A stretch of DNA of 64,000 bases from Phycisphaerales bacterium (GTDB taxonomy: Bacteria; Planctomycetota; Phycisphaerae; Phycisphaerales; SM1A02). Of the stretch, positions 5,722-52,486 are shown in pieces. The DNA lies in the NCBI GenBank assembly GCA_029268515.1, contig JAQWNP010000012.1:1-64000 (forward strand). The letters are read 5' to 3'. The number at the start of each line of letters is the position of its first letter. Within the stretch, counting starts at the first letter, position 1. The notes under the pieces were generated by a model that saw nothing but the letters and a program-made list of their open reading frames with translations, did no database searches and was not told where the DNA came from. The translations under genes were made by a program, and so were the position numbers.

Positions 5722-5853
5722 AGGAGGGTACTGTAGCGAAGCAACACGTCACACGCGACCCCAAAGGCCACATACCCACACTTGCTGGTAACTGCCTGGG
5801 GTGGTTCAATAGGGGTTCAGCCCCGAAAAAGAATCGGCCGAAGGAGCCCTTTA

Positions 5854-7008
5854 ATGCCACAGATATCCACCTCCACCCAAATTCTGCTTGCCACGTTGAC
5901 ACTATCAATAGGTGCCAGTCTCCAAGCGGTCGAGATTACGGTTTGCCCAGCAGGGTGCGATCAAGCAACCATCCAAGCCGGCATTGACGCTGCGGGCCCA
6001 GGGGATTCGGTCATCGTGACGCCTGATGAGTATCGGGAGAACATCAATCTGAATGGCAAAGAGATCACGCTCACCTCAAGTGAAGACGAATTGTTCGTCA
6101 TCCTCAAGCCTGCCCCAGGCACACCCGATGAGCCTGTTGTTTCTATTACAAGTGGCAATGTGAACTCAACAATCATCGGCTTCGACATCCGCAACGGTGT
6201 GACCACAGGCAATGGCGCCGGCATCAGGATCGAAAACAGCACCGCAGAAACCAGAACCCTTATTTTTCAACGCTGCGTCGTTTCACGTAACCAAACCGAC
6301 GAAAACGGCGCCGGTGTTTCAGTGAGTGGAGCGAATAGCCTTGTCACATTTACGAATTGCACGTTCTCCAACAATAGCGCAGGCGGTAATGGCGGGGGAA
6401 TGACTATCGAGATTGACGCGGTGGTTACGCTCGAAGGCTGTCGCTTCCAACGCAATGCCGCAGGTGGCCTTACTTCAGCGTCCGGTGGCGGACTCAATAT
6501 ATCTGATGCTGATGCAACCATCACTGGTTGCAGTTTCAACATAAACGTGGCGCCAGAAAATGGCGGCGGCCTCAACATGGACTGTGGCGAGGGCTTTAAA
6601 GTCGATTTATACAATTGTGCATTCTCCAGTAACAGCGCCAAGCTGGGAGGCGGCTTCTATGGAACAGGCGACGCCAAATTCACCGTAAAATACTCTCTCT
6701 TCAAAAAGAACACTGCCACAACAAATGGTGGCGGACTTGCTTTTGATCGCCTACGCAACAGCGTTGGAAAATTCAATACGATCAAGCGAAACGTTGCTTT
6801 TGATAATGGCGGCGGCCTTTATGTTGCGTACAAAAACTTGACGTTTAATTATCTCACGATCACAAAGAACACCTCGGTCAATGGTGGCGGAGTTGATGCA
6901 AACAACGCCAGGGTGAAACTCTATGATTCACGTGTTTGCAAAAATGAAGGCGGCAACACGAATGGCAACGTCGTAGCCAAATCTGATACACAAATTTGCT
7001 CTGACTAA
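5854..7008 (+). CDS. Secreted right-handed parallel beta-helix repeat protein
   Basis: I chose ATG 5854, preceded by AAGGAG at 5841-5846 (7-base spacing), not the upstream in-frame opening; this gives 384 aa with a signal peptide ending near SLQA. The segment CDQATIQAGIDAAGPGDSVIV is the usual first strand of pectate-lyase-like/NosD-like beta-helices. The rest shows repeats of roughly 22-30 residues marked by NGGGL, GNGGGM and ENGGGL turns alternating with short V/I/F strands and Cys or Asn ladders, typical of polymorphic outer membrane or right-handed beta-helix proteins. No catalytic residues are recognisable, so it may be a carbohydrate-binding or adhesin-like surface protein. It is 58 bases upstream of the tryptophan catabolic operon and probably unrelated to it. 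Confidence 0.7.
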   Translation: MPQISTSTQILLATLTLSIGASLQAVEITVCPAGCDQATIQAGIDAAGPGDSVIVTPDEYRENINLNGKEITLTSSEDELFVILKPAPGTPDEPVVSITSGNVNSTIIGFDIRNGVTTGNGAGIRIENSTAETRTLIFQRCVVSRNQTDENGAGVSVSGANSLVTFTNCTFSNNSAGGNGGGMTIEIDAVVTLEGCRFQRNAAGGLTSASGGGLNISDADATITGCSFNINVAPENGGGLNMDCGEGFKVDLYNCAFSSNSAKLGGGFYGTGDAKFTVKYSLFKKNTATTNGGGLAFDRLRNSVGKFNTIKRNVAFDNGGGLYVAYKNLTFNYLTITKNTSVNGGGVDANNARVKLYDSRVCKNEGGNTNGNVVAKSDTQICSD

Positions 7009-7066
7009 TGCGTGACATAGGCGCAACCCATAGCGTCCTCGCGGCGCAATAAAGCGAGCCGCCGAA

Positions 7067-8110
7067 TTGTATAAAGTAGATCTGCATACACATATCCTGC
7101 CTCCGAAGTGGCCTGATTTTGCAAAGAAGTGGGCTGATGACCGCTGGGTCACGATGACACAGACATCTCCATGCTGTGCTGATTTAATGTGTCAAGGAAG
7201 TAAGTTCAGGCAAATCGAGTCTAATTGTTGGGATCCCCAACGTCGCATTGAGGAATGCGATGAGACGGGGGTCAATGTCCAGGTGCTTTCTACCGTTCCC
7301 GTCATGTTTAATTACTGGGCAGACGGCGACAAGGCACTCGAGCTCGCAAAGATTCTCAACGATCATGTCGCACAAGTCGTACGCGAATTTCCAACCCGTT
7401 TTTTAGGACTGGGAACGGTGCCTCTGCAATCCCCTGATCTAGCCATTGCTGAACTTGAACGGTGTATTGGTGAACTGGGCCTGGCTGGCGTGCAGATTGG
7501 CACCCATGTCAATGGCTGCAATTTAGATGACGATTCAATTTTTCCGTTCCTTCAAGCAGCCGAAGCAAACAATGCCGCAGTCTTTGTGCATCCATGGGAC
7601 ATGCTTGGCGCGAATCGGATGCAGCAATACTGGCTCCAATGGCTGGTTGGCATGCCCGCTGAAACAGCGTTGGCGATGTGCTCCCTGATCTTTGGCGGCG
7701 TACTTGACCGGCTTCCGCGACTTCGGATTGCTTTTGCTCATGGTGGGGGTGGCTTTCCAAATATCATTGGCCGTGTTGAGCATGGATTCAATGTGCGGCC
7801 GGATTTATGTGCGGTCAACAATTGCAATGACCCGCGAAGCTACCTTGAGCGACTCTACGTAGACTCTCTCGTCCATGATCCATTGGCTTTGAATTTACTC
7901 ATTGACTTGTTTGGCTTTGATCGCATCGCAGTTGGCTCCGACTATCCATTTCCTCTCGGTGAATCAAGGCCTGGCATGCTGGTCGAATCACTGCCCGAGC
8001 TCACCAAGACGCAGCGTGGCCGAATGTTGGCTGGAACAGCTCTTGAGTTCCTAGGCATCAACCCAACCCACACCGTAGCGAGAGATTTTCAGACAGCATG
8101 CAGCGACTAG
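7067..8110 (+). CDS. 2-amino-3-carboxymuconate-6-semialdehyde decarboxylase (ACMSD)
   Basis: 347 aa, starting at TTG 7067 so that the metal-binding VDLHTHILP motif is at residues 4-12. It decarboxylates ACMS to 2-aminomuconate 6-semialdehyde, steering tryptophan carbon away from quinolinate and NAD. All amidohydrolase-type zinc ligands are visible: HTH near the start, FVHPWDM, FAHGGGGFP and VGSDYPFP. Length and motif order match bacterial and animal ACMSD. It is the first gene of a tight five-gene plus-strand operon and overlaps the start of the kynureninase gene by 13 bases. TTG is the only reasonable start because the catalytic HxH lies within the first nine codons. Confidence 0.93.
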   Translation: MYKVDLHTHILPPKWPDFAKKWADDRWVTMTQTSPCCADLMCQGSKFRQIESNCWDPQRRIEECDETGVNVQVLSTVPVMFNYWADGDKALELAKILNDHVAQVVREFPTRFLGLGTVPLQSPDLAIAELERCIGELGLAGVQIGTHVNGCNLDDDSIFPFLQAAEANNAAVFVHPWDMLGANRMQQYWLQWLVGMPAETALAMCSLIFGGVLDRLPRLRIAFAHGGGGFPNIIGRVEHGFNVRPDLCAVNNCNDPRSYLERLYVDSLVHDPLALNLLIDLFGFDRIAVGSDYPFPLGESRPGMLVESLPELTKTQRGRMLAGTALEFLGINPTHTVARDFQTACSD

Positions 8111-9417
8111 CACCCATCAAACATCCAATGCCTGCTGATGATTTTTCAGGAACAAGAGCATTTGCTGTTGCTGCTGATGAGTGCGATCCACTCCATCTCC
8201 TTCGAGATGAGTTTGAGCACCCATTTGACGAGAACGGAAATTCAATTCGCTACTTTGCAGGCAACAGCCTGGGGCTGATGCCAAAGAAGGCAAAACAGCT
8301 CGTTGCGCAAGAGCTTGATGATTGGGCGAAGCATGGTGTCGACGGCCACCAGCATGGTGATTCAGCCTGGTACCGTTACCACGAATTATTCCGTGAGACT
8401 GGCGCCGCAATGGTCGGCGCTCAGGCCGGCGAAACCGTCATGATGAACTCGCTGACGGTCAATCTTCATCTGATGTTAGTCAGCTTCTATCAGCCTGATT
8501 TGCCGAGCGGCCGCACAAAGATTTTGCTCGAGGAGCCGATCTTTCCATCAGATCGGTACGCGATAGCCTCACATATCCGATCGCGTGGCCTTGATCCAAA
8601 CGAACACGTCATATGGATTCGCCCGCGACCCAACGAGCACTTAATTCACACTGAAGATGTGGAGCAACTGCTGCGAGATCATGGCAGTGAGATTGCGCTT
8701 GTCATGCTGGCTGGTGTGAACTATTTCACCGGTCAATTCATGGAAATCGATCGCATTACGCAGGCTGGCCATGCTGCAGGTTGCATTGTGGGATGGGACC
8801 TCGCACATGCCGTTGGCAACATGCCGCTTGAACTGCATGAATGGGGACCAGATTTTGCTGTTTGGTGCTCTTACAAATATCTCAATTCAGGACCCGGCGC
8901 CATTGCCGGTTGTTTTATTCATCAGCGACATGAACATTCACTCGAACTCAATCGCTACAGCGGATGGTGGGGGAATGATCCTGAAACACGATTTGAATTC
9001 AATGATGCCTTTTATCCCCAGCGGGGCGCCGATGGATGGCAACTCAGCAATCCACCGATTCTCGCCATGGCGCCACTGCGAGCCTCGCTTGATCTTTTTC
9101 AGCAGGCTTCCATAAAAAAGCTTCGGGCCAAGAGTATTGCACTGACTGGGTATTTGCGATGGTTACTGGAACAGGCCGAAGGAAAGCCATTCGAAATTAT
9201 CACTCCCTCTGACCCTCATTTATGTGGGTGCCAACTCTCACTGCTCGTCCACGATCAACCGCGAGAACGTTTTGAGGCCGTACGCGCCGCACACATGGTG
9301 TGTGACTTTAGAACCCCAAATGTCATACGGGTTGCGCCAACACCGCTCTACAATACCTTTGAAGATGTCTGGGTCTTAGCAGATGTACTCTCAGCACAAC
9401 AGGCAAAAAATCAATGA
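8098..9417 (+). CDS. kynU: Kynureninase
   Basis: 439 aa PLP enzyme (fold type I) that hydrolyses kynurenine or 3-hydroxykynurenine to anthranilate or 3-hydroxyanthranilate plus alanine. The N-terminal YFAGNSLGLMPKKAK motif is diagnostic, as are GWDLAHAVGNMPL and WCSYKYLNSGPG, which carries the PLP lysine K260. The ending VIRVAPTPLYNTFEDVW is the usual C-terminal signature. Its ATG lies inside the end of the ACMSD gene (13-base overlap); an alternative ATG at 8128 would avoid this. The downstream gene overlaps by ATGA. With the monooxygenase next door, the physiological substrate is probably 3-hydroxykynurenine. Confidence 0.95.
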   Translation: MQRLAPIKHPMPADDFSGTRAFAVAADECDPLHLLRDEFEHPFDENGNSIRYFAGNSLGLMPKKAKQLVAQELDDWAKHGVDGHQHGDSAWYRYHELFRETGAAMVGAQAGETVMMNSLTVNLHLMLVSFYQPDLPSGRTKILLEEPIFPSDRYAIASHIRSRGLDPNEHVIWIRPRPNEHLIHTEDVEQLLRDHGSEIALVMLAGVNYFTGQFMEIDRITQAGHAAGCIVGWDLAHAVGNMPLELHEWGPDFAVWCSYKYLNSGPGAIAGCFIHQRHEHSLELNRYSGWWGNDPETRFEFNDAFYPQRGADGWQLSNPPILAMAPLRASLDLFQQASIKKLRAKSIALTGYLRWLLEQAEGKPFEIITPSDPHLCGCQLSLLVHDQPRERFEAVRAAHMVCDFRTPNVIRVAPTPLYNTFEDVWVLADVLSAQQAKNQ

Positions 9418-10742
9418 CCCAACACGCCGTCATCGTGGGGGCTGGCCTGGCTGGGAGTCTACTTGCCTGCCATCTCGCCCGCGCAGGGTGGAAGGTCGAT
9501 GTCTATGAGGGTCGCCCCGATCCAAGAAACGCCGGTTTCATTGGCGGCAGATCAATTAACCTCGCTCTTTCGACCCGTGGTATTGACGCGCTGAATCAAG
9601 TGGGGCTTGCAGAGCGCGTTCTCAAAGACGCTGTTGCAATGCCTGGCCGTATGCTCCATGACAAAGAGGGCCGCCAGACCTTTCAGCCCTATTCAGGCAA
9701 ACAGAACAATTTCATCAATTCGGTCTCGCGGGGCGGACTCAACATCACCCTTCTCAAGGCGGCCGATGATTATGATTCGGTCACACTACATTTCGAACGG
9801 AGCTGCACTGGAATCGACCTCAAGCAGGGCATTGCGACCGTGTGTGATCTCAAAAACCAGACCTCAACAACGCCGGAGTGCGATCTATTGATCGGCGCCG
9901 ACGGCGCTTTCTCGAAAGTGCGAGAGAGCATGGCCACACAGGCAGGGTTCAGCCACTCGATTTCCTATATTGATCATGGCTATAAGGAACTGACGATTCC
10001 AGCGGCCGCCGATGGAAGTCATGTGCTTGATCCGGAGGCACTTCATATCTGGCCACATGGCGAGTCAATGATGATTGCATTGGCCAATCAGGATGGCTCC
10101 TTTACATGCACACTCTTTTGGCCTTGGAATGGCCCAATCAGCTTCAATGCCATCAAGCGATCTGAAGACGTACAACCACTCTTTGAGGCGCACTTTAAAG
10201 ACGTGGTCCCACTGATGCCAGATCTTGTCGAACTCTACATGAAGAACCCAACAAGTTCACTACAAACCATTCGTTGTGGGCCTTGGCATTTTGGTGACAA
10301 AGTTGTTCTGATTGGAGATTCTGCTCATGCCATTGTTCCTTTTTTTGGCCAAGGCATGAATGCCGCCTTTGAGGACTGCACTGTTCTCACGCGTCATCTT
10401 TCGGCTTCTGATTCAGTTGCCCAGGCAATCGCAGGCTTCTACGCTGAGCAGAAGCCAAACGCTGAGGCAATTGCAGATCTTGCACTTAGTAACTTCATAG
10501 AGATGCGAGATACGGTTCGATCGCCAATATTCAATGTAAAAAAGAAGATTGAGCGATTCCTCACTCAGATCTCAAGAGGTCGGTACAAGTCGCTCTATGA
10601 GATGGTGTCTTTCACGACCATCCCTTATGCCAAAGTCTGCCAGCGAGCTCGCCGTCGCCAGCGTATTCTATTAGCTGCTCTGTTCACTCTCACCGCCGTT
10701 CTTATTATCTGTGGCCTACTTGCCATTGGCTCTACTTTTTAG
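9414..10742 (+). CDS. kmo: Kynurenine 3-monooxygenase
   Basis: 442 aa FAD-dependent hydroxylase converting kynurenine to 3-hydroxykynurenine with NADPH and O2. The N-terminal dinucleotide-binding motif VGAGLAGSLLACHLARAG, the FIGGRSINLALSTRG segment typical of KMO, and the second FAD motif LIGDSAHAIVPFFGQGMNA are visible. A C-terminal hydrophobic segment (residues about 417-438, ILLAALFTLTAVLIICG) suggests membrane association, as in eukaryotic KMO. The start overlaps the kynU stop by four bases (ATGA), implying translational coupling. Confidence 0.94.
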   Translation: MTQHAVIVGAGLAGSLLACHLARAGWKVDVYEGRPDPRNAGFIGGRSINLALSTRGIDALNQVGLAERVLKDAVAMPGRMLHDKEGRQTFQPYSGKQNNFINSVSRGGLNITLLKAADDYDSVTLHFERSCTGIDLKQGIATVCDLKNQTSTTPECDLLIGADGAFSKVRESMATQAGFSHSISYIDHGYKELTIPAAADGSHVLDPEALHIWPHGESMMIALANQDGSFTCTLFWPWNGPISFNAIKRSEDVQPLFEAHFKDVVPLMPDLVELYMKNPTSSLQTIRCGPWHFGDKVVLIGDSAHAIVPFFGQGMNAAFEDCTVLTRHLSASDSVAQAIAGFYAEQKPNAEAIADLALSNFIEMRDTVRSPIFNVKKKIERFLTQISRGRYKSLYEMVSFTTIPYAKVCQRARRRQRILLAALFTLTAVLIICGLLAIGSTF

Positions 10743-10756
10743 GTGTTCTTCGCCAA

Positions 10757-11554
10757 ATGACCGAGACGCAACCACCATTGACGTATGCTCGCTATCTTCA
10801 TCTAGATTCACTCCTGCATCTTCAGCAAGCGCAATCAAATCCTGCTGAACACGATGAAATGCTTTTTATCATTATTCACCAGACGTATGAACTGTGGTTT
10901 AAGCAAGCACTTCATGAACTAGACAGGGCAAAAGAGCATCTAGCCAACAATGAACTTTACGGGGCACTAGGAACCTTCAAACGAGTTCGCATGATTCTCA
11001 AAACACTCGTTGGCCAGATCGACATCCTGGAAACCATGACCCCGGTTTCTTTCCAGAGCTTTCGGGATCGCCTTGATACCGCCTCTGGATTTCAATCAAT
11101 GCAGTTCAGAGAGTTGGAATTTGTCCTTGGTGCTAAACGTCCAGAAGTTTCAAAATATATCAAGCCAAGCATGCTTGGATATGAAGCCGTCATAAGAAGA
11201 CTCAATGAGCCTTCACTCACTGATCACTTTCATACCTTTCTCATTGCCAACGATGCAAAAATACCGCAGGAGGTATTGGATCGCGACATAACCCAACCCA
11301 ATAGTGCCAATGAGCAAGTACAGCATGAATTGGTCCGTCTTTACCGAGAACGCCCCGACCTCGCCTTGCTGTTTGAACTGATGACCGACATTGACGAGGG
11401 CCTACAGGAATGGCGATACCGCCATGTCAAACTTGCCGAACGCACGATTGGGCAGAGGCCTGGGACTGGAGGGTCCCCAGGCATCGAATTCCTAAAGCGA
11501 TCGTTGTTCACTCCTGTCTTCCCCGACCTTTGGCAAATTCGGAATCAGCTCTAA
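10757..11554 (+). CDS. kynA: Tryptophan 2,3-dioxygenase
   Basis: 265 aa heme enzyme that opens the indole ring of L-tryptophan to N-formylkynurenine, the committing step of the pathway. The signatures LTYARYLHLDSLLHLQ, MLFIIIHQTYELWFKQ (containing the distal-site His and substrate-contact residues) and GFQSMQFRELEFVLG are characteristic. The C-terminal GTGGSPGIEFLKRSLF motif is also typical. It lies 14 bases after kmo and two bases before the formamidase ATG. The length is normal for bacterial TDO. Confidence 0.95.
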   Translation: MTETQPPLTYARYLHLDSLLHLQQAQSNPAEHDEMLFIIIHQTYELWFKQALHELDRAKEHLANNELYGALGTFKRVRMILKTLVGQIDILETMTPVSFQSFRDRLDTASGFQSMQFRELEFVLGAKRPEVSKYIKPSMLGYEAVIRRLNEPSLTDHFHTFLIANDAKIPQEVLDRDITQPNSANEQVQHELVRLYRERPDLALLFELMTDIDEGLQEWRYRHVKLAERTIGQRPGTGGSPGIEFLKRSLFTPVFPDLWQIRNQL

Positions 11555-11556
11555 CC

Positions 11557-12180
11557 ATGGAAGTGCTCTACGATATTTCACCATCGATCGATTCTGACCT
11601 GGCTGTCTGGCCAGGAGACACACCAATTTCCCGACGAGTCCTCATGGATATCGAGAAGGGTGATTCAGTTCGCCTCTCGACCATGACTGCAACCGTTCAC
11701 CTGGGATCCCATGCCGATGCACCTTCTCACTATGCAATGGATGGTGCCGGCATCGAACAATGGCCACTGTCTTATTTCATTGGCCCATGCCAGGTCATGC
11801 ATGTTGATGTCAAACCAGGCGACCTTGTTGGTATACAACACTTAACTGGCGAGATACAAGCTGGCAGAATCATCCTTGCCGGCGGCACCTATCCAGATCC
11901 AACCCACTTTAATGAGGACTTCTGCGCCCTCGATCCCGCTCTGGTCGATCACTTGCATGCGGAAGGGGTGATGACTGTTGGTGTCGACACTCCGAGCGTT
12001 GACCCATTCGACTCAAAAGATTTACAAGCCCACACCCGTTTCTACCACAATGAAATGGCGATTATTGAGACCCTCCGCCTTGAAGGGGTGCCCGATGGTT
12101 TATATCAATTGGTGGCTCCGCCACTGAAGCTTGCTGGCTTTGATGGCAGTCCTGTGCGCGCCGCGCTTTGCTCGCTCTAG
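11557..12180 (+). CDS. kynB: Kynurenine formamidase (cyclase family)
   Basis: I chose ATG 11557 (207 aa); the upstream frame reading is inside kynA. It hydrolyses N-formylkynurenine to kynurenine and formate. The metal-binding motif HLGSHADAPSHYAMDG of bacterial KynB/cyclase-family hydrolases is clear, as is VGVDTPSVDPFDSKDLQAH. It starts two bases after the kynA stop, so it is the last gene of the plus-strand operon. Its TAG shares the palindrome CTAG with the stop of the convergent RidA gene. In order of reaction, kynA-kynB-kmo-kynU are all present here. Confidence 0.94.
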   Translation: MEVLYDISPSIDSDLAVWPGDTPISRRVLMDIEKGDSVRLSTMTATVHLGSHADAPSHYAMDGAGIEQWPLSYFIGPCQVMHVDVKPGDLVGIQHLTGEIQAGRIILAGGTYPDPTHFNEDFCALDPALVDHLHAEGVMTVGVDTPSVDPFDSKDLQAHTRFYHNEMAIIETLRLEGVPDGLYQLVAPPLKLAGFDGSPVRAALCSL

Positions 12181-47350: not shown

Positions 47351-47623
47351 ATGGGCAAGGCAATTGTCGATCCTGAAGAACTTCGTCGTTTCGCCAGCGA
47401 ACTCAAGCGATTTAATAATGAGCTACAACAGAGACTCACGTCACTTCAAGGGCGATGGCGTAGCTTGGGTGAGACCTGGAGAGACCAAGAACATAAGAAG
47501 TTTGCAGATGAGTTTGAGCATACCGCTCGCGCACTGGGGCAATTTGTAGAGGTAAGCAATCAACACATTCCGTTCCTTCTTCGCAAAGCAGATCGGATTG
47601 ATGAGTACCTACAACAGCGATAG
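47351..47623 (+). CDS. WXG100-like small secreted-type helical protein
   Basis: 90 aa with no signal peptide, predicted as a two-helix hairpin. It has the size and central tryptophan turn of ESAT-6/WXG100 proteins, but reads WRD in place of WxG: the turn is ETWRDQEHKKFADEF at residues 41-55 (W43, D45, K49, F51). Helix 1 spans about 8-40, helix 2 about 47-88. WXG100 proteins are substrates or partners of type VII secretion ATPases. It is the first gene of a four-gene cassette with a large FtsK-like ATPase. Annotating it as WXG100 rests on fold size, the turn and context. Confidence 0.75.
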   Translation: MGKAIVDPEELRRFASELKRFNNELQQRLTSLQGRWRSLGETWRDQEHKKFADEFEHTARALGQFVEVSNQHIPFLLRKADRIDEYLQQR

Positions 47624-47649
47624 AACTAAACGCTACGCCGTTCGATAAA

Positions 47650-48216
47650 ATGTCTAACCCTGCCGACATTCGAAGTTTCGAAGCATTACTCGACACCCGA
47701 GTGGCACTTATCTCGTTCGCAGAAAATGCGAGGGCGTCACTTGGTGATGTGGATGCAAATGTCAAGAAGATGATGAGCTGGCTGGAGAATGACCGACCCC
47801 AGCATTGGAAACGTGAGCTCAAACGGAGGGAACGAGCGATGGCGGATGCCAAACTCGATCTTCAACGGTGCCTCATGAATAACCGAAATGATCGAGGCCG
47901 ATGCCTTCTCGAGAAACGAAGATTTGATAAATGCGAACGAGCCGTTGAGGAAGCTAAACAGAAACTTGTTGCGATTCGAAAATGGCGACAGATGTTTCCG
48001 AGAGAAGTCGCTTTGTACAAGGCTCAGACGGGACAACTCGGACATGCAGCCGATCACCAAGTACCTGTGGCGGTGGCTGAGCTCGAACGGATGGCCAGAG
48101 CACTCGAAGCATATGTTCAAACCAAGCCCGTACATGGCAAGTCGAGCCCCTCGCCACGACGACCCTCGGCCGGCCAAGATGGGAACATGTCTCCAAAATC
48201 AGAGGAATCAGAATGA
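47650..48216 (+). CDS. Coiled-coil protein of the WXG100/FtsK cassette
   Basis: 188 aa, no signal peptide. Residues about 10-150 are nearly all helical with heptad-like hydrophobic spacing and many charged residues (RRERAMADAKLDLQRCLMNN, EEAKQKLVAIRKWRQMFPRE). The last 35 residues are disordered (Pro/Ser/Lys rich). No known domain. It sits between the two WXG100-like genes (27 bases after the first, ATGA overlap with the second). In this position it could be a substrate, chaperone or structural element of the secretion-like system; that is inference. Confidence 0.7.
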   Translation: MSNPADIRSFEALLDTRVALISFAENARASLGDVDANVKKMMSWLENDRPQHWKRELKRRERAMADAKLDLQRCLMNNRNDRGRCLLEKRRFDKCERAVEEAKQKLVAIRKWRQMFPREVALYKAQTGQLGHAADHQVPVAVAELERMARALEAYVQTKPVHGKSSPSPRRPSAGQDGNMSPKSEESE

Positions 48217-48419
48217 GTGCAGGACGAAGTAAGCTTCAGCTCACCTATAAGGAACTATGTATAGCCTGGGAAAAGACCTCCACTGTCTGGGGCGATGCAA
48301 CCGCCAAGAGCTTCGGAGAACGGTATATCGAATCGCTCCGACCTTGCGTCAAGTCAGCCTGCGACGGCATGGAACAGATGTCCCAGATCATTCAACAAGT
48401 CAAGCGTGACTGCGGATGA
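48213..48419 (+). CDS. Second WXG100-like miniprotein
   Basis: 68 aa, start overlaps the preceding stop (ATGA), with AGAGGA 6 bases upstream. It has a turn WGDATAKSFGERY (W26, D28, K32, F34) that matches the W-x-D-x3-K-x-F pattern of the first cassette gene, so the two may be distant homologues or heterodimer partners. Helix 1 (about 8-24) is shorter than in canonical WXG100 proteins. Three Cys residues are also present (C16, C45, C50) plus C67. Nothing else is recognised. Confidence 0.65.
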   Translation: MSAGRSKLQLTYKELCIAWEKTSTVWGDATAKSFGERYIESLRPCVKSACDGMEQMSQIIQQVKRDCG

Positions 48420-48550
48420 TGCCCTGACCCATGAAACTCATACTCCACCAATGGACCCACCCCACGCACCAACAGGCCAATTCTGATTTAGAATAGCCGC
48501 TGCGTAGAGGCTGCTAAAGCAGAATCTTATTGCCCTTGGAGCCCGACCTG

Positions 48551-51500
48551 ATGACCGCTGATCCCAACTCCATCAACGCTGATGGCAACAACGAAACTCT
48601 GAGCGCCAAGCAGCGACTGGCGATTCAGCAGATCAAGCAACTCACTGAGCAGCGGCATGCTGCTGAAAGAGCGACCAACGAAGCCAAAGAAAGCGGCCTT
48701 GCCCATCTCGAAAAAGAACACGCTGACACTCTTTCGGCAATTGAGACGGCCCACAAATCAGGACTCATCAAGGCGAAAGAAAAGCGAACAAAAGCAATTC
48801 ATCAGTGCGAATCAACTTTCAAGTTGAGCGTTAAGTCGGCTGAGGAAGGACTCCAGAATCGGCTCAAGAGCATCCATCAGCGAGACCTGACCCAATCTAA
48901 AAAGTCAAAGGACAACCTAGAGTTTGGCCAGTGGATCGCTGAGTCAGTCTATGAGGCCAATCAGCAACAACCGAGAGAGCAGTTCCTGGTTCGCAAAGAC
49001 AACATTGAAGAAACCGCAAAGCAAATCTCAGAGATCGCACGCCTAAGCTCACGAACACTAAAGAGGTATTGGCAGCCTCGCATCAACAGTACAAATCTTG
49101 AACGTGTGGAAAAAGGCGACAACCCCACACACACACTGCACTCATCACTCCAAGATGCGCAGCGGGGCTTTGCAAATCTCCGCCAACTTTGGATCCCAAA
49201 ATGCCTCAATCCACTCAGTATTCTTCTCGTTCTTATTATTACAGGCACCATTATCTTTGGTTGCGGCTGGCTTGTATTTAGCAATCAATTGTCGACATGG
49301 ATCACGACCAGCTCCGCTGTAACTGTAGGCATTCTTATTGTTTGGACATTGATCGCATACCTTGTCACACGCCGGCAAACTGCCGAGATACGCCTCCATC
49401 TAGAAAAGAGTATCCGGCGCGGACTTGCATCCGTAAATGACTGCATTGAAGCAGCTGAACAAGCAATGCAACAAATGGAGTTTTCGCTCCAAAGCGAGCG
49501 AGACAAGGAGATTACTCGAGTCAAGGATACCTATGAGCCCCGTATCGAAGGACTCGGCGAGCACCGCCAACGACGGCAAGATCAAGCACAGATCCGCTAC
49601 GAACAGCGACTTGAGCATATCGACAAAAAAAAGAAGGAAACACTCCCCCTTATTGAGAGCGAATACGAGCAACTGGTTGCCACCACAACTCAAACCCATC
49701 AAGACGATCTCTCAAAGGAACAACACGAACATAAGCAGAAGGCAGATAAAATCCACTCGACGCATGACGAGGATTTTGAGTCACTAAAAAAACAGTGGGA
49801 CACAGGCATTGAAAAACATTGGTCAACGCTCCTAAAGATCAACGAGCGAGCTAAGACTATTTTCGGCTCAGACCACGAGAGCCGTCCATACCAAGCGCCT
49901 ACAACATTTCCCGACATGATTCAGTTTGGTTCGCTGGATCTTGATTTTTCAGCAATCCCTCATGCAATCCCAACAGATGCACGCCTTGCATTCCCTTGCC
50001 CTAAAAAGGTTGCACTGCCAGCAATCCTGGACTTCCCTATTGCCAGCTCTTTATTGATCAAAACAACGGGCGCTTCAAGGGCAAATGGAATTGATGTCAT
50101 TAGTGCGACCATGTTTAGACTCCTTACGGCACTACCGCCAGGCAAAGTTCGCTTTACCATTTTTGATCCCATTGGGCTTGGCCAAAGCTTTGCAGGCTTT
50201 ATGCATCTCGCTGATTACGAAAACGCTTTTGCACTCGACAAGATCTGGTCAGATTCCCGCCACTTTGAACAGCGACTTGCCGATCTAACCGACCACATGG
50301 AAGTAGTGATACAGAAGTACCTGCGCAATGAATTTCCAACCATTGCACACTACAATCAGCAAGCCGGACCAATTGCCGAACCATATCGCTTCCTGGTTAT
50401 CGCAGACTTCCCAAATCAATTCAGTGAGATTGCAACCCGCCGCCTCGCTAGCATTATTAATAGTGGGCCACGCTGTGGCGTATTCACATTGATGACCATG
50501 GACACCGCTGAGAAATTACCGAGTGGCTTTGATCTTGAAGAGCTCGAGCGAGGCGCGGTGACTCTTATTCATCGGGAGGATCAGTTCACTTGGCAGGATG
50601 AGACTTTTGCGGACCTTCCGCTTTCGACCGAACTCCCTCCTTCATCAGAACAACTCACTGAAACACTTCATGTATTGGGCCCACTTGCGCAATCTGCAAA
50701 CCGCGTTGAAGTCCCATTCCATATGGTGAGCCCAGATGCCGACAGCCTCTGGCAAGAATCAACGACTGATGCAATTACTGTTCCACTTGGGCTCAATGGT
50801 GCTAACAAAATGCAGTACCTTGCACTGGGCAAAGGAACCTCTCAACACGTCCTGCTTACTGGCAAAACTGGCTCCGGAAAATCCACACTACTGCATGTTC
50901 TGGTCACTAATTTGGCGATGCGATATAGCCCAGATGAGGTCGAATGCTATCTCATCGATTTCAAGAAGGGTGTGGAATTCAAAACATATGCCACACATGA
51001 ACTTCCACACGCTCGCGTGATCGCCATAGAGTCAGACAGAGAATTTGGAATCAGCGTTCTGGACCGCTTAGATTCAGAGCTTCGCCGTCGGGGCGCACTT
51101 TTTAGAGATGCTGGCGTTCAAGATTTACCTGGATTCCGAGCGGCCCATCCAGAGCAACCAATGCCGCGATCACTGCTCATCATCGATGAATTCCAAGAGC
51201 TCTTTATCGAAGAGGACAAAGTCGCTCAAGATGCCGCATTGCTCATGGACCGCCTTGTGCGCCAAGGACGTGCTTTTGGCATTCATGTACTACTCGGATC
51301 TCAGACACTCGGTGGCGCCTATTCCCTGGCTCGCAGCACGATTGGACAAATGAATATTCGCATTGCGCTACAGTGCAGTGAAGCCGATGCTCACATGGTT
51401 CTTGGTGAAGACAATGATGCCGCCCGCCTGCTTTCACGGCCAGGCGAAGCAATCTACAACGATGCCAATGGACAGGTTGAAGGCAACAGCCCCTTCCAAG

Positions 51501-52486
51501 TTGTCTGGCTTGATGATGCCGATCGAGATAAATACTTAGGCTATGTGCAGAATCGTTTCCAAACCGAACCTCCACAAGGCAACTACCCACCACCCGCAAT
51601 CTTCGAAGGCAATGTGCCAGCACATCTTGAAAGAAACCAGCTCCTGACCACTTGCCTCCAGGAAGACCACCGAAAACCGAGCCCAACATTAGTCAATTGC
51701 TGGCTCGGCGAAGCTATTGCCATAAAAGACCCCACCGCATGTGCCTTGAAACGTGAAACTGGCTCACATCTCATTATCGTTGGGCAACGCGATGAATCAG
51801 CGCTCGCCATGATGGCCAGCAGCCTTATCAGTATTACAGCACAGGTGAAACCTTCGAAGATATCAGACAAACTCTCTAACATTGTGCTGCTCGATGCGAC
51901 CAATCCTGAAGATACACGACATGGCTTCTTACAGAGTGTCCTAAGTCATAGCGATCATGAATACAACTTCGGCAATTGGCGGCAGGCGCCAGAGCTTATG
52001 GATGTTGTATCAGCTGAACTGAGTCGTCGACAGGAAGGTCGCATCTCAGACGAGCCACCCGTATTCGTATTTATTCATGCACTACATCGCTTCAGAGATT
52101 TCCGCCGTGGCGATGATGATTTCAGCTTCTCAGTAGACGAGGATGCGACCCCCACGCCCGACAAGCAGCTCAAAGAACTGCTTCAAGAGGGACCAGCTCA
52201 TGGGATACATGTGATCACCTGGTGCGACACCGTCAATAACATGGAACGCGCCTTTGATCGGCAGAGCTTGCGAGAGCTATCAAATCGAGTGCTCTTTCAA
52301 ATGAGCACAAGTGATTCTGCGACACTTATTGATTCGCCAATTGCTGCCAATCTCGGCATGCACAGAGCACTTATTTACCGGGATGAACTAGCACAAACTG
52401 AGAAGTTTCGCCCGTACGCGATGCCAGAAAATACGATATTAGAATTTGTAGCTCAACATTTGGGCAATAAGAATGGCCTAGGCTAA
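48551..52486 (+). CDS. FtsK/SpoIIIE-family membrane ATPase, type VII secretion-like (EccC/EssC-related)
   Basis: 1311 aa from ATG 48551 (GGAG 9 bases upstream). Residues about 10-160 are a long coiled coil. Two membrane helices at about 220-242 and 250-272 form a hairpin. A second coiled coil follows at about 276-438. Then three FtsK-like modules: D1 (about 480-710) has no Walker A lysine motif; D2 (about 745-990) has Walker A GKTGSGKST (771-779) and Walker B LLIIDEFQEL (D879-E880); D3 (about 1050-1290) is degenerate (VGQRDESAL at 1077-1085). A three-module ATPase with a TM hairpin is the plan of EccC/EssC, motors of type VII secretion. The N-terminal FHA domains of EssC are absent. Neighbours are two WXG100-like genes, which supports this reading over DNA translocation. 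Confidence 0.85.
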   Translation: MTADPNSINADGNNETLSAKQRLAIQQIKQLTEQRHAAERATNEAKESGLAHLEKEHADTLSAIETAHKSGLIKAKEKRTKAIHQCESTFKLSVKSAEEGLQNRLKSIHQRDLTQSKKSKDNLEFGQWIAESVYEANQQQPREQFLVRKDNIEETAKQISEIARLSSRTLKRYWQPRINSTNLERVEKGDNPTHTLHSSLQDAQRGFANLRQLWIPKCLNPLSILLVLIITGTIIFGCGWLVFSNQLSTWITTSSAVTVGILIVWTLIAYLVTRRQTAEIRLHLEKSIRRGLASVNDCIEAAEQAMQQMEFSLQSERDKEITRVKDTYEPRIEGLGEHRQRRQDQAQIRYEQRLEHIDKKKKETLPLIESEYEQLVATTTQTHQDDLSKEQHEHKQKADKIHSTHDEDFESLKKQWDTGIEKHWSTLLKINERAKTIFGSDHESRPYQAPTTFPDMIQFGSLDLDFSAIPHAIPTDARLAFPCPKKVALPAILDFPIASSLLIKTTGASRANGIDVISATMFRLLTALPPGKVRFTIFDPIGLGQSFAGFMHLADYENAFALDKIWSDSRHFEQRLADLTDHMEVVIQKYLRNEFPTIAHYNQQAGPIAEPYRFLVIADFPNQFSEIATRRLASIINSGPRCGVFTLMTMDTAEKLPSGFDLEELERGAVTLIHREDQFTWQDETFADLPLSTELPPSSEQLTETLHVLGPLAQSANRVEVPFHMVSPDADSLWQESTTDAITVPLGLNGANKMQYLALGKGTSQHVLLTGKTGSGKSTLLHVLVTNLAMRYSPDEVECYLIDFKKGVEFKTYATHELPHARVIAIESDREFGISVLDRLDSELRRRGALFRDAGVQDLPGFRAAHPEQPMPRSLLIIDEFQELFIEEDKVAQDAALLMDRLVRQGRAFGIHVLLGSQTLGGAYSLARSTIGQMNIRIALQCSEADAHMVLGEDNDAARLLSRPGEAIYNDANGQVEGNSPFQVVWLDDADRDKYLGYVQNRFQTEPPQGNYPPPAIFEGNVPAHLERNQLLTTCLQEDHRKPSPTLVNCWLGEAIAIKDPTACALKRETGSHLIIVGQRDESALAMMASSLISITAQVKPSKISDKLSNIVLLDATNPEDTRHGFLQSVLSHSDHEYNFGNWRQAPELMDVVSAELSRRQEGRISDEPPVFVFIHALHRFRDFRRGDDDFSFSVDEDATPTPDKQLKELLQEGPAHGIHVITWCDTVNNMERAFDRQSLRELSNRVLFQMSTSDSATLIDSPIAANLGMHRALIYRDELAQTEKFRPYAMPENTILEFVAQHLGNKNGLG

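What the first reader, a model, noticed from the sequence alone, without database searches (positions are those of the whole stretch)
47351..52486. Minimal type VII-secretion-like cassette: two WXG100-like proteins, a coiled-coil protein and an FtsK/EssC-type ATPase
Seen: four plus-strand genes in tight order, encoding a 90-aa helical hairpin protein, a 188-aa coiled-coil protein, a 68-aa hairpin protein with a matching turn, and a 1311-aa membrane FtsK-like ATPase. Known: WXG100 proteins beside a multi-domain FtsK-like ATPase are the hallmark of type VII secretion (ESX/EccC in Actinobacteria, Ess/EssC in Firmicutes). Inferred: this is a planctomycete secretion-like system in a diderm. None of the usual accessory genes (EccB/D/E, EsaA/EssA/EssB, YukD-like) is adjacent, so the parts list differs from described systems. 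Crossing an outer membrane is an open problem for it.
Basis: partly seen in the sequence, partly recalled or inferred. Interest (0 to 1): 0.85.

Follow-up and report, generated by a model that had tools for sequence, protein, structure and literature searches.

The report
Planctomycete WXG100–EssC-like four-gene cassette
Four bacterial genes that travel together encode a membrane-anchored protein-pumping ATPase and three small helical partners; they look like a stripped-down relative, in cells with two membranes, of the type VII secretion machines of Gram-positive bacteria, a kind so far mentioned only in passing in the literature.

Summary
Window 47351-52486 encodes A (90 aa, WXG100), B (188 aa, long helical hairpin), C (68 aa, a diverged WXG100 paralogue) and D (1311 aa, membrane-anchored three-domain FtsK/EssC-type ATPase). 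The order A-B-C-D recurs in 59 of 63 testable loci from named genomes, mostly Planctomycetota. Nothing else nearby is conserved.

A and D co-occur in 49 of 50 D-bearing genomes in a 292-genome phylum sample. None of the 242 genomes without D has A. This holds even where A and D lie far apart on the chromosome.

D's predicted ATPase region best matches the type VII ATPases EccC and EssC. Only its middle domain keeps Walker motifs.

It is not a T7SSa or T7SSb member: A has WxD instead of WxG and lacks the YxxxD/E signal in 117 of 117 proteins, and no YukD or credible YukC was found in the genome. It fits the "solo WXG + YueA-like ATPase" kind of a 2012 table footnote and resembles CoCoNuT-linked WXG100/FtsK operons (2024). 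It differs in being membrane-anchored, free-standing and near-universal in its family.

Best reading: a T7-like export motor (D) with a B-A-C pre-secretion complex. Export itself is inferred, not shown.

The parts
47351..47623 (+). Gene A: 90-aa WXG100 protein with a WxD turn and C-terminal YLQQR
   Evidence: PF06013 E 7e-10, above cut-off; best solved-structure match H. pylori HP0062, E 7.9e-11; 117 of 117 relatives WxD, 111 of 117 exactly 90 aa
47477..47485 (+). WRD turn motif of A (residues 43-45; W43 and D45 invariant)
   Evidence: alignments A2 and A7
47650..48216 (+). Gene B: 188-aa protein, two ~70-residue helices forming a long hairpin, plus a disordered tail; some relatives carry an Imm33-like C-terminal domain
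   Evidence: AlphaFold2 mean pLDDT 89.4, helices 8-77 and 82-158; no Pfam or PDB family; Imm33-like domain in long relatives
48213..48419 (+). Gene C: 68-aa diverged WXG100-type protein with a W-x-D turn and a Cys near the C terminus
   Evidence: profile link to A; W-x-D in 125 of 135 and Cys in 126 of 135 relatives
48551..52486 (+). Gene D: 1311-aa membrane FtsK/EssC-class ATPase
   Evidence: PF01580 E 1.5e-29; fold of residues 425-1311 best matches EccC 4nh0 and EssC 4lya
49220..49276 (+). D transmembrane segment 1 (about residues 224-242)
   Evidence: hydropathy; two segments in 122 of 133 relatives
49313..49369 (+). D transmembrane segment 2 (about residues 255-273)
50006..50593 (+). D ATPase-like domain 1 (residues 486-681), no Walker A motif
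   Evidence: model; alignments
50774..51463 (+). D ATPase domain 2 (residues 742-971), the only one with intact Walker motifs
   Evidence: model; GKTGSGKST 771-779 and LLIIDEF 875-881
50861..50887 (+). Walker A GKTGSGKST of domain 2
51692..52417 (+). D ATPase-like domain 3 (residues 1048-1289), no Walker A motif
   Evidence: model; alignments

Best explanation
The cassette encodes a minimal, membrane-anchored, type-VII-like protein-export motor. D sits in the inner membrane through two helices. Shown: its ATPase region has the EccC/EssC fold by prediction, with only the middle domain able to bind ATP by motif. Inferred: A, a 90-aa WXG100 hairpin, pairs with itself or with its short paralogue C. 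A and C pack along the ~150-residue helical hairpin of B, as Lap1/Lap2 associate with LXG domains or PE with PPE. The conserved C-terminal YLxQR tail of A docks on the degenerate ATPase domains of D. ATP hydrolysis by domain 2 then moves B and/or the Esx-like proteins across the inner membrane into the periplasm. No outer-membrane step is encoded nearby. In plasmid relatives the B slot can carry nuclease domains. In the window B carries none, and in other Planctomycetota it may carry an Imm33-like domain, so the planctomycete version is probably a domesticated, housekeeping-like use of this machine.
For: D fold: EccC 4nh0 E 5.6e-32 across all three ATPases, EssC 4lya 3.6e-24, ahead of FtsK 5.7e-16; two-helix membrane anchor in 122 of 133 relatives. 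A is WXG100 by Pfam and its best solved matches are HP0062 and EsxB/EsxA. C is related to A. A-B-C-D order 59 of 63; no other recurrent neighbour. A with D in 49 of 50 genomes, A without D in 0 of 242, also when unlinked in single-contig chromosomes. B is a long helical hairpin. In a Helicobacter plasmid the B-position protein ends in a Colicin-DNase/WHH domain followed by a SUKH-type gene, between A and the C-position gene. LXG-Lap1-Lap2 precedent from PMC9600955. A separate FtsK-like ORF of about 905 aa exists in the same genome.
Against: No export was or could be shown. YxxxD/E is absent from all 117 A proteins. No YukD and no credible YukC in the genome. Only one A and one C in the genome, so no visible substrate repertoire. 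No outer-membrane component. Related CoCoNuT-linked ATPases are soluble (PMC11090510); the Caballeronia plasmid D has no hydrophobic segment and the Helicobacter one only a weak peak in its ATPase region. B homology to the plasmid proteins is significant only for Rhodococcus (2.4e-8) and weak or absent for the others.
Confidence: 0.55

Rival explanations
1. An intracellular stress or anti-phage module: D is an ATP-driven scaffold or remodeller using WXG100 hairpins as adaptors, with no protein export. The planctomycete form is a stand-alone branch of the Ter/CoCoNuT-linked WXG100-FtsK operon.
For: Closest plasmid relatives lie beside TerY-P-like genes (Caballeronia: VWA, PP2C, kinase, CARF) or TerD genes (Rhodococcus); CoCoNuT-linked homologues lack membrane helices (PMC11090510).
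Against: The planctomycete D is membrane-anchored in nearly all relatives; no other gene of any kind recurs nearby; PADLOC matches cover mainly the generic ATPase region; near-universal presence in the family is unlike a patchy defence system.
Confidence: 0.25
2. A toxin-delivery system of the LXG type whose toxin has been lost: B is the remains of a polymorphic effector, A and C its targeting factors, and the Imm33-like domain a captured immunity domain.
For: Helicobacter plasmid cassette with a DNase/WHH domain in the B position and a SUKH gene; Imm33-like domain on 12 of 13 long B proteins tested.
Against: B of the window has no effector domain; the genome shows a single A and C and no other WXG-like protein; strong conservation of A (75% mean column identity) argues against decay.
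Confidence: 0.12
3. A DNA translocase for chromosome segregation or division in bacteria with an unusual division apparatus, with the small proteins as regulators.
For: FtsK-family motor domain and membrane anchor.
Against: Fold ranks EccC and EssC above FtsK; a separate FtsK-like ORF is encoded in the same genome; WXG100 partner A is strictly paired with D.
Confidence: 0.05

Closest known systems
Solo WXG with a distinct YueA-like ATPase (Zhang et al. 2012, PMC3482391, table footnote 6)
WXG100/EssC-like operon in Type III-A CoCoNuT systems (Bell et al. 2024, PMC11090510; citing Anantharaman et al. 2012)
   Same: Three-domain ATPase with only D2 active and a long N-terminal coiled coil; two WXG100 proteins, one without the motif; a coiled-coil protein
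   Different: Those ATPases lack transmembrane helices, the coiled-coil protein carries a nuclease-like domain, and TerY-like VWA genes flank the locus; here none of these holds
H. pylori HP0062 with HP0066 (PDB 3fx7; PMC3397514, PMC4978471)
   Same: WRD hairpin protein in a diderm, clustered with an FtsK/SpoIIIE protein; best solved-structure match to A
T7SSa (ESX/EccC) and T7SSb (Ess/EssC)
   Same: WXG100 partner; membrane motor with three ATPase domains; EccC/EssC fold
   Different: No YukD or credible YukC, no recurrent adjacent genes; WxD instead of WxG; no YxxxD/E; ATPase domain 1 inactive by motif
LXG effector with Lap1/Lap2 targeting factors (T7SSb; PMC9600955)
   Same: One long helical protein plus two small WXG100-like hairpins encoded together
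   Different: B lacks a toxin domain and no sequence link to LXG was found; the FxxxD export motif was not looked for

Membership tests
Type VII secretion system (T7SSa/T7SSb) | WXG100 family protein | tested here: met
   PF06013 39.5 bits vs cut-off 27.3; TIGR03930 cut-off not reached (33.9 vs 44.85)
Type VII secretion system (T7SSa/T7SSb) | EccC/EssC ATPase equivalog | tested here: not met
   TIGR03924/03925/03928 matched at 86-129 bits, cut-offs 346-778; the fold is of the EccC/EssC class
Type VII secretion system (T7SSa/T7SSb) | W-x-G turn motif | tested here: not met
   117 of 117 A proteins have WxD
Type VII secretion system (T7SSa/T7SSb) | YxxxD/E C-terminal secretion signal | tested here: not met
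   0 of 117 A, 1 of 118 C
Type VII secretion system (T7SSa/T7SSb) | YukD/EsaB ubiquitin-like subunit | tested here: not met
   no match in own genome at E up to 1; B. subtilis control positive
Type VII secretion system (T7SSa/T7SSb) | YukC/EssB subunit | tested here: not met
   only sub-threshold short matches (best E 0.003, 16.9 bits vs 27.4) inside large ORFs
Type VII secretion system (T7SSa/T7SSb) | EccB/EccD/EccE, EssA, EsaA | not tested
   no recurrent neighbour of any kind; not searched genome-wide
Type VII secretion system (T7SSa/T7SSb) | ATP-dependent secretion of the WXG100 protein | not testable with these tools
   needs an experiment
Solo WXG + YueA-like ATPase (Zhang 2012) | three FtsK/HerA domains, only the middle one active | tested here: met
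   three domains in the model; Walker motifs only in domain 2
Solo WXG + YueA-like ATPase (Zhang 2012) | WXG protein without T7SS accessory genes | tested here: met
   (EccB/D/E and EssA/EsaA not searched genome-wide)
Solo WXG + YueA-like ATPase (Zhang 2012) | mobile behaviour | tested here: inconclusive
   near-universal in family f1 and composition like its flanks, but patchy in the order and phylum
CoCoNuT-linked WXG100/EssC-like operon | soluble ATPase, TerY-like VWA genes, coiled-coil nuclease | tested here: not met
   membrane segments, no recurrent neighbour in 80 loci, no nuclease domain found on B
LXG effector / Lap pair | B related to LXG domains | tested here: inconclusive
   no LXG Pfam match; long helical hairpin with no specific PDB match

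The most novel reading that the evidence does not exclude
A distinct type-VII-like export system of diderm bacteria: a membrane motor with an obligate single WXG100 partner (A), a paralogue (C) and a hairpin cargo carrier (B), vertically kept as a core function in many Planctomycetota and separate from toxin delivery, with its own C-terminal YLxQR signal instead of YxxxD/E.
Probability: 0.35. Interest if true: 0.85.

Novelty: new variant of a known kind. Interest (0 to 1): 0.58.

Why it matters
Type VII secretion is described for Gram-positive and mycolate-bearing bacteria. A simple, widely kept, membrane-anchored relative in Gram-negative-type cells would show how little is needed for a WXG100/EssC machine and would make the question of function in a diderm envelope directly testable. 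The strict A-D pairing, even when the genes lie megabases apart, gives a clean starting point: one motor, one WXG100 partner, no accessory genes. It also shows that a kind noted only in a table footnote and as an add-on to a defence system is, in one planctomycete family, near-core.

Tried and rejected
Searched PMC for planctomycete type VII or WXG100 work; the only planctomycete statement found is the Zhang 2012 footnote. No hint in the P. limnophila essential-gene paper PMC10632474. Foldseek with B gave only generic coiled-coil matches, none below E 0.001. PADLOC matches (SspH, mad8) lie in the generic FtsK region and were set aside. In-frame stops flagged for D in some genomes suggested a split gene; reading one flagged case (G076) gave an intact 1314-aa ORF, so I dropped the idea, though the other flagged genomes were not read. 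My first view that many loci lacked the cassette was an orientation artefact, corrected. Phage hits to D are partial matches to its ATPase region. ApoA-I matches to the D stalk reflect amphipathic helices, not homology.
Full report
OBSERVATION. B and C overlap by ATGA; C and D are 131 bp apart. Flanks are ordinary genes: a cyclophilin upstream and an acyl-CoA dehydrogenase downstream. Base composition does not change at the borders.

WHAT THE PROTEINS ARE. A is a WXG100 protein by Pfam (7e-10, above cut-off). As a profile it best matches H. pylori HP0062 among solved structures (7.9e-11), then EsxB and EsxA. The turn motif is W-x-D, not W-x-G, in 117 of 117 relatives, 111 of which are exactly 90 aa. 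The C terminus is YLxQR in most, and YxxxD/E is absent in all. C is not recognised by Pfam, but profiles join it to A. It has a W-x-D turn in 125 of 135 relatives and a cysteine near the end in 126 of 135. B is predicted at pLDDT 89 as two ~70-residue helices in a hairpin, with no specific fold match. Of 66 B proteins from named genomes 12 are over 290 aa. Of the long B proteins scanned, 13 of 14 entries (one, L004, from the same place as L051) are listed across; only L106 lacked a match, and most matches to the Imm33-like domain exceed the Pfam cut-off. The B in the window has no such domain.

THE MOTOR. D has an N-terminal helical half with two hydrophobic segments (two in 122 of 133 relatives), then three RecA-like domains in a model at pLDDT 85. 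Foldseek ranks EccC (4nh0, 5.6e-32, across all three ATPases) and EssC (4lya) above FtsK. Walker motifs are intact only in domain 2 (GKTGSGKST 771-779, LLIIDEF 875-881). It is not the cell-division FtsK: a separate FtsK-like ORF of about 905 aa matches weakly elsewhere in the genome.

CONSERVATION. In the window's family, D was matched in 176 of 181 genomes at the loose threshold. By my reading of the table, 158 have an ortholog or a fragment of one, and the clear absences cluster in genera g13-g16. A and D co-occur there (147 both, 19 neither, 11 D only, 4 A only; p 1.5e-14); G071 and G063, among the 11, have D near a contig end. In a 292-genome phylum sample, 50 have a match to D below 1e-60; 49 of these have A, and none of the other 242 does (p 3e-55, not corrected for relatedness). 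The exception, G542, has D at a contig start. Named loci are mainly Planctomycetota, with a few labelled Verrucomicrobiales, Lentisphaerae or Alphaproteobacteria MAG. A-B-C-D order holds in 59 of 63 loci with at least 1.9 kb upstream, and no other neighbour recurs. In some lineages D stands apart from A/B/C. In genera g28 and g4 the small genes sit together elsewhere. In G303, G370 and G208 A is without a detected B beside it. So the link is functional, not merely positional.

RELATIVES ELSEWHERE. tblastn against plasmids found three with both A and D relatives: Caballeronia, Helicobacter and Rhodococcus. In Caballeronia the genes sit among VWA, CARF, PP2C and kinase genes. In Helicobacter the protein in the B position ends in a Colicin-DNase/WHH domain and is followed by a SUKH-type gene, then the C- and D-position genes. 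In Rhodococcus the order is D-B-C-A beside TerD genes. A is clearly homologous in all three (1.8e-24 to 7.9e-15); B homology is significant for Rhodococcus only; the small C-position proteins are weak or unrelated by profile.

MECHANISM. I propose an export motor (D) with a pre-secretion complex of B with A and C, by analogy with LXG-Lap1-Lap2 (PMC9600955). Shown by computation: the fold class of D, its membrane segments, the WXG100 nature of A and C, the hairpin shape of B, and the strict A-D pairing. Inferred: complex formation, ATP-driven transport, and the role of YLxQR. Unknown: cargo, destination, and any outer-membrane step. Confidence 0.55. Rivals: an intracellular Ter/CoCoNuT-like module (0.25), a decayed toxin system (0.12), a DNA translocase (0.05).

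KNOWN KINDS. Zhang et al. 2012 (PMC3482391) noted in a table footnote that planctomycetes and other diderms have solo WXG domains with a distinct ATPase with three domains, only the middle active, and called them mobile. Bell et al. 2024 (PMC11090510) described an EssC-like ATPase with only D2 active, an N-terminal coiled coil, two WXG100 proteins and a coiled-coil nuclease in CoCoNuT systems, without transmembrane segments. The present cassette matches the ATPase logic and the two-WXG layout. It differs by the membrane anchor, the absence of TerY-P and nuclease genes, and its near-universal, single-copy presence in a family. It fails several T7SSa/T7SSb tests (membership table), so I do not file it as one. 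Verdict: real, well conserved, a new variant of a known kind; interest 0.58.

Noticed in passing
L172 (Helicobacter sp. NHP19-012 plasmid) 5749-10151: A cassette relative in which the B-position protein ends in a Colicin-DNase/WHH domain and is followed by a SUKH-type (SMI1/KNR4) gene, between A and the C- and D-position genes.
   Followed up: partly
L173 (Rhodococcus sp. AH-ZY2 plasmid) 6492-11922: D-B-C-A in reversed order next to TerD genes; by eye the D N terminus looks TerD-like, but this was not tested with a profile.
   Followed up: partly
B relatives, e.g. L004 72-1133, L057 4547-5614: An Imm33-like domain (PF24719) sits at the C terminus of long B proteins in Planctomycetota; role unknown.
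   Followed up: partly
window 48213-48419 and relatives: C has a cysteine near its C terminus in 126 of 135 relatives although it is otherwise divergent; no explanation found.
   Followed up: no
L179-L188 (G303, G411, G500, G370, G208): A, and sometimes B and C, lie far from D on single-contig chromosomes, yet A and D occur together.
   Followed up: yes
L097 (record titled Alphaproteobacteria MAG SP218), L113, L125, L129: Cassette relatives in records named outside Planctomycetota; not checked for mislabelled or mixed bins.
   Followed up: no
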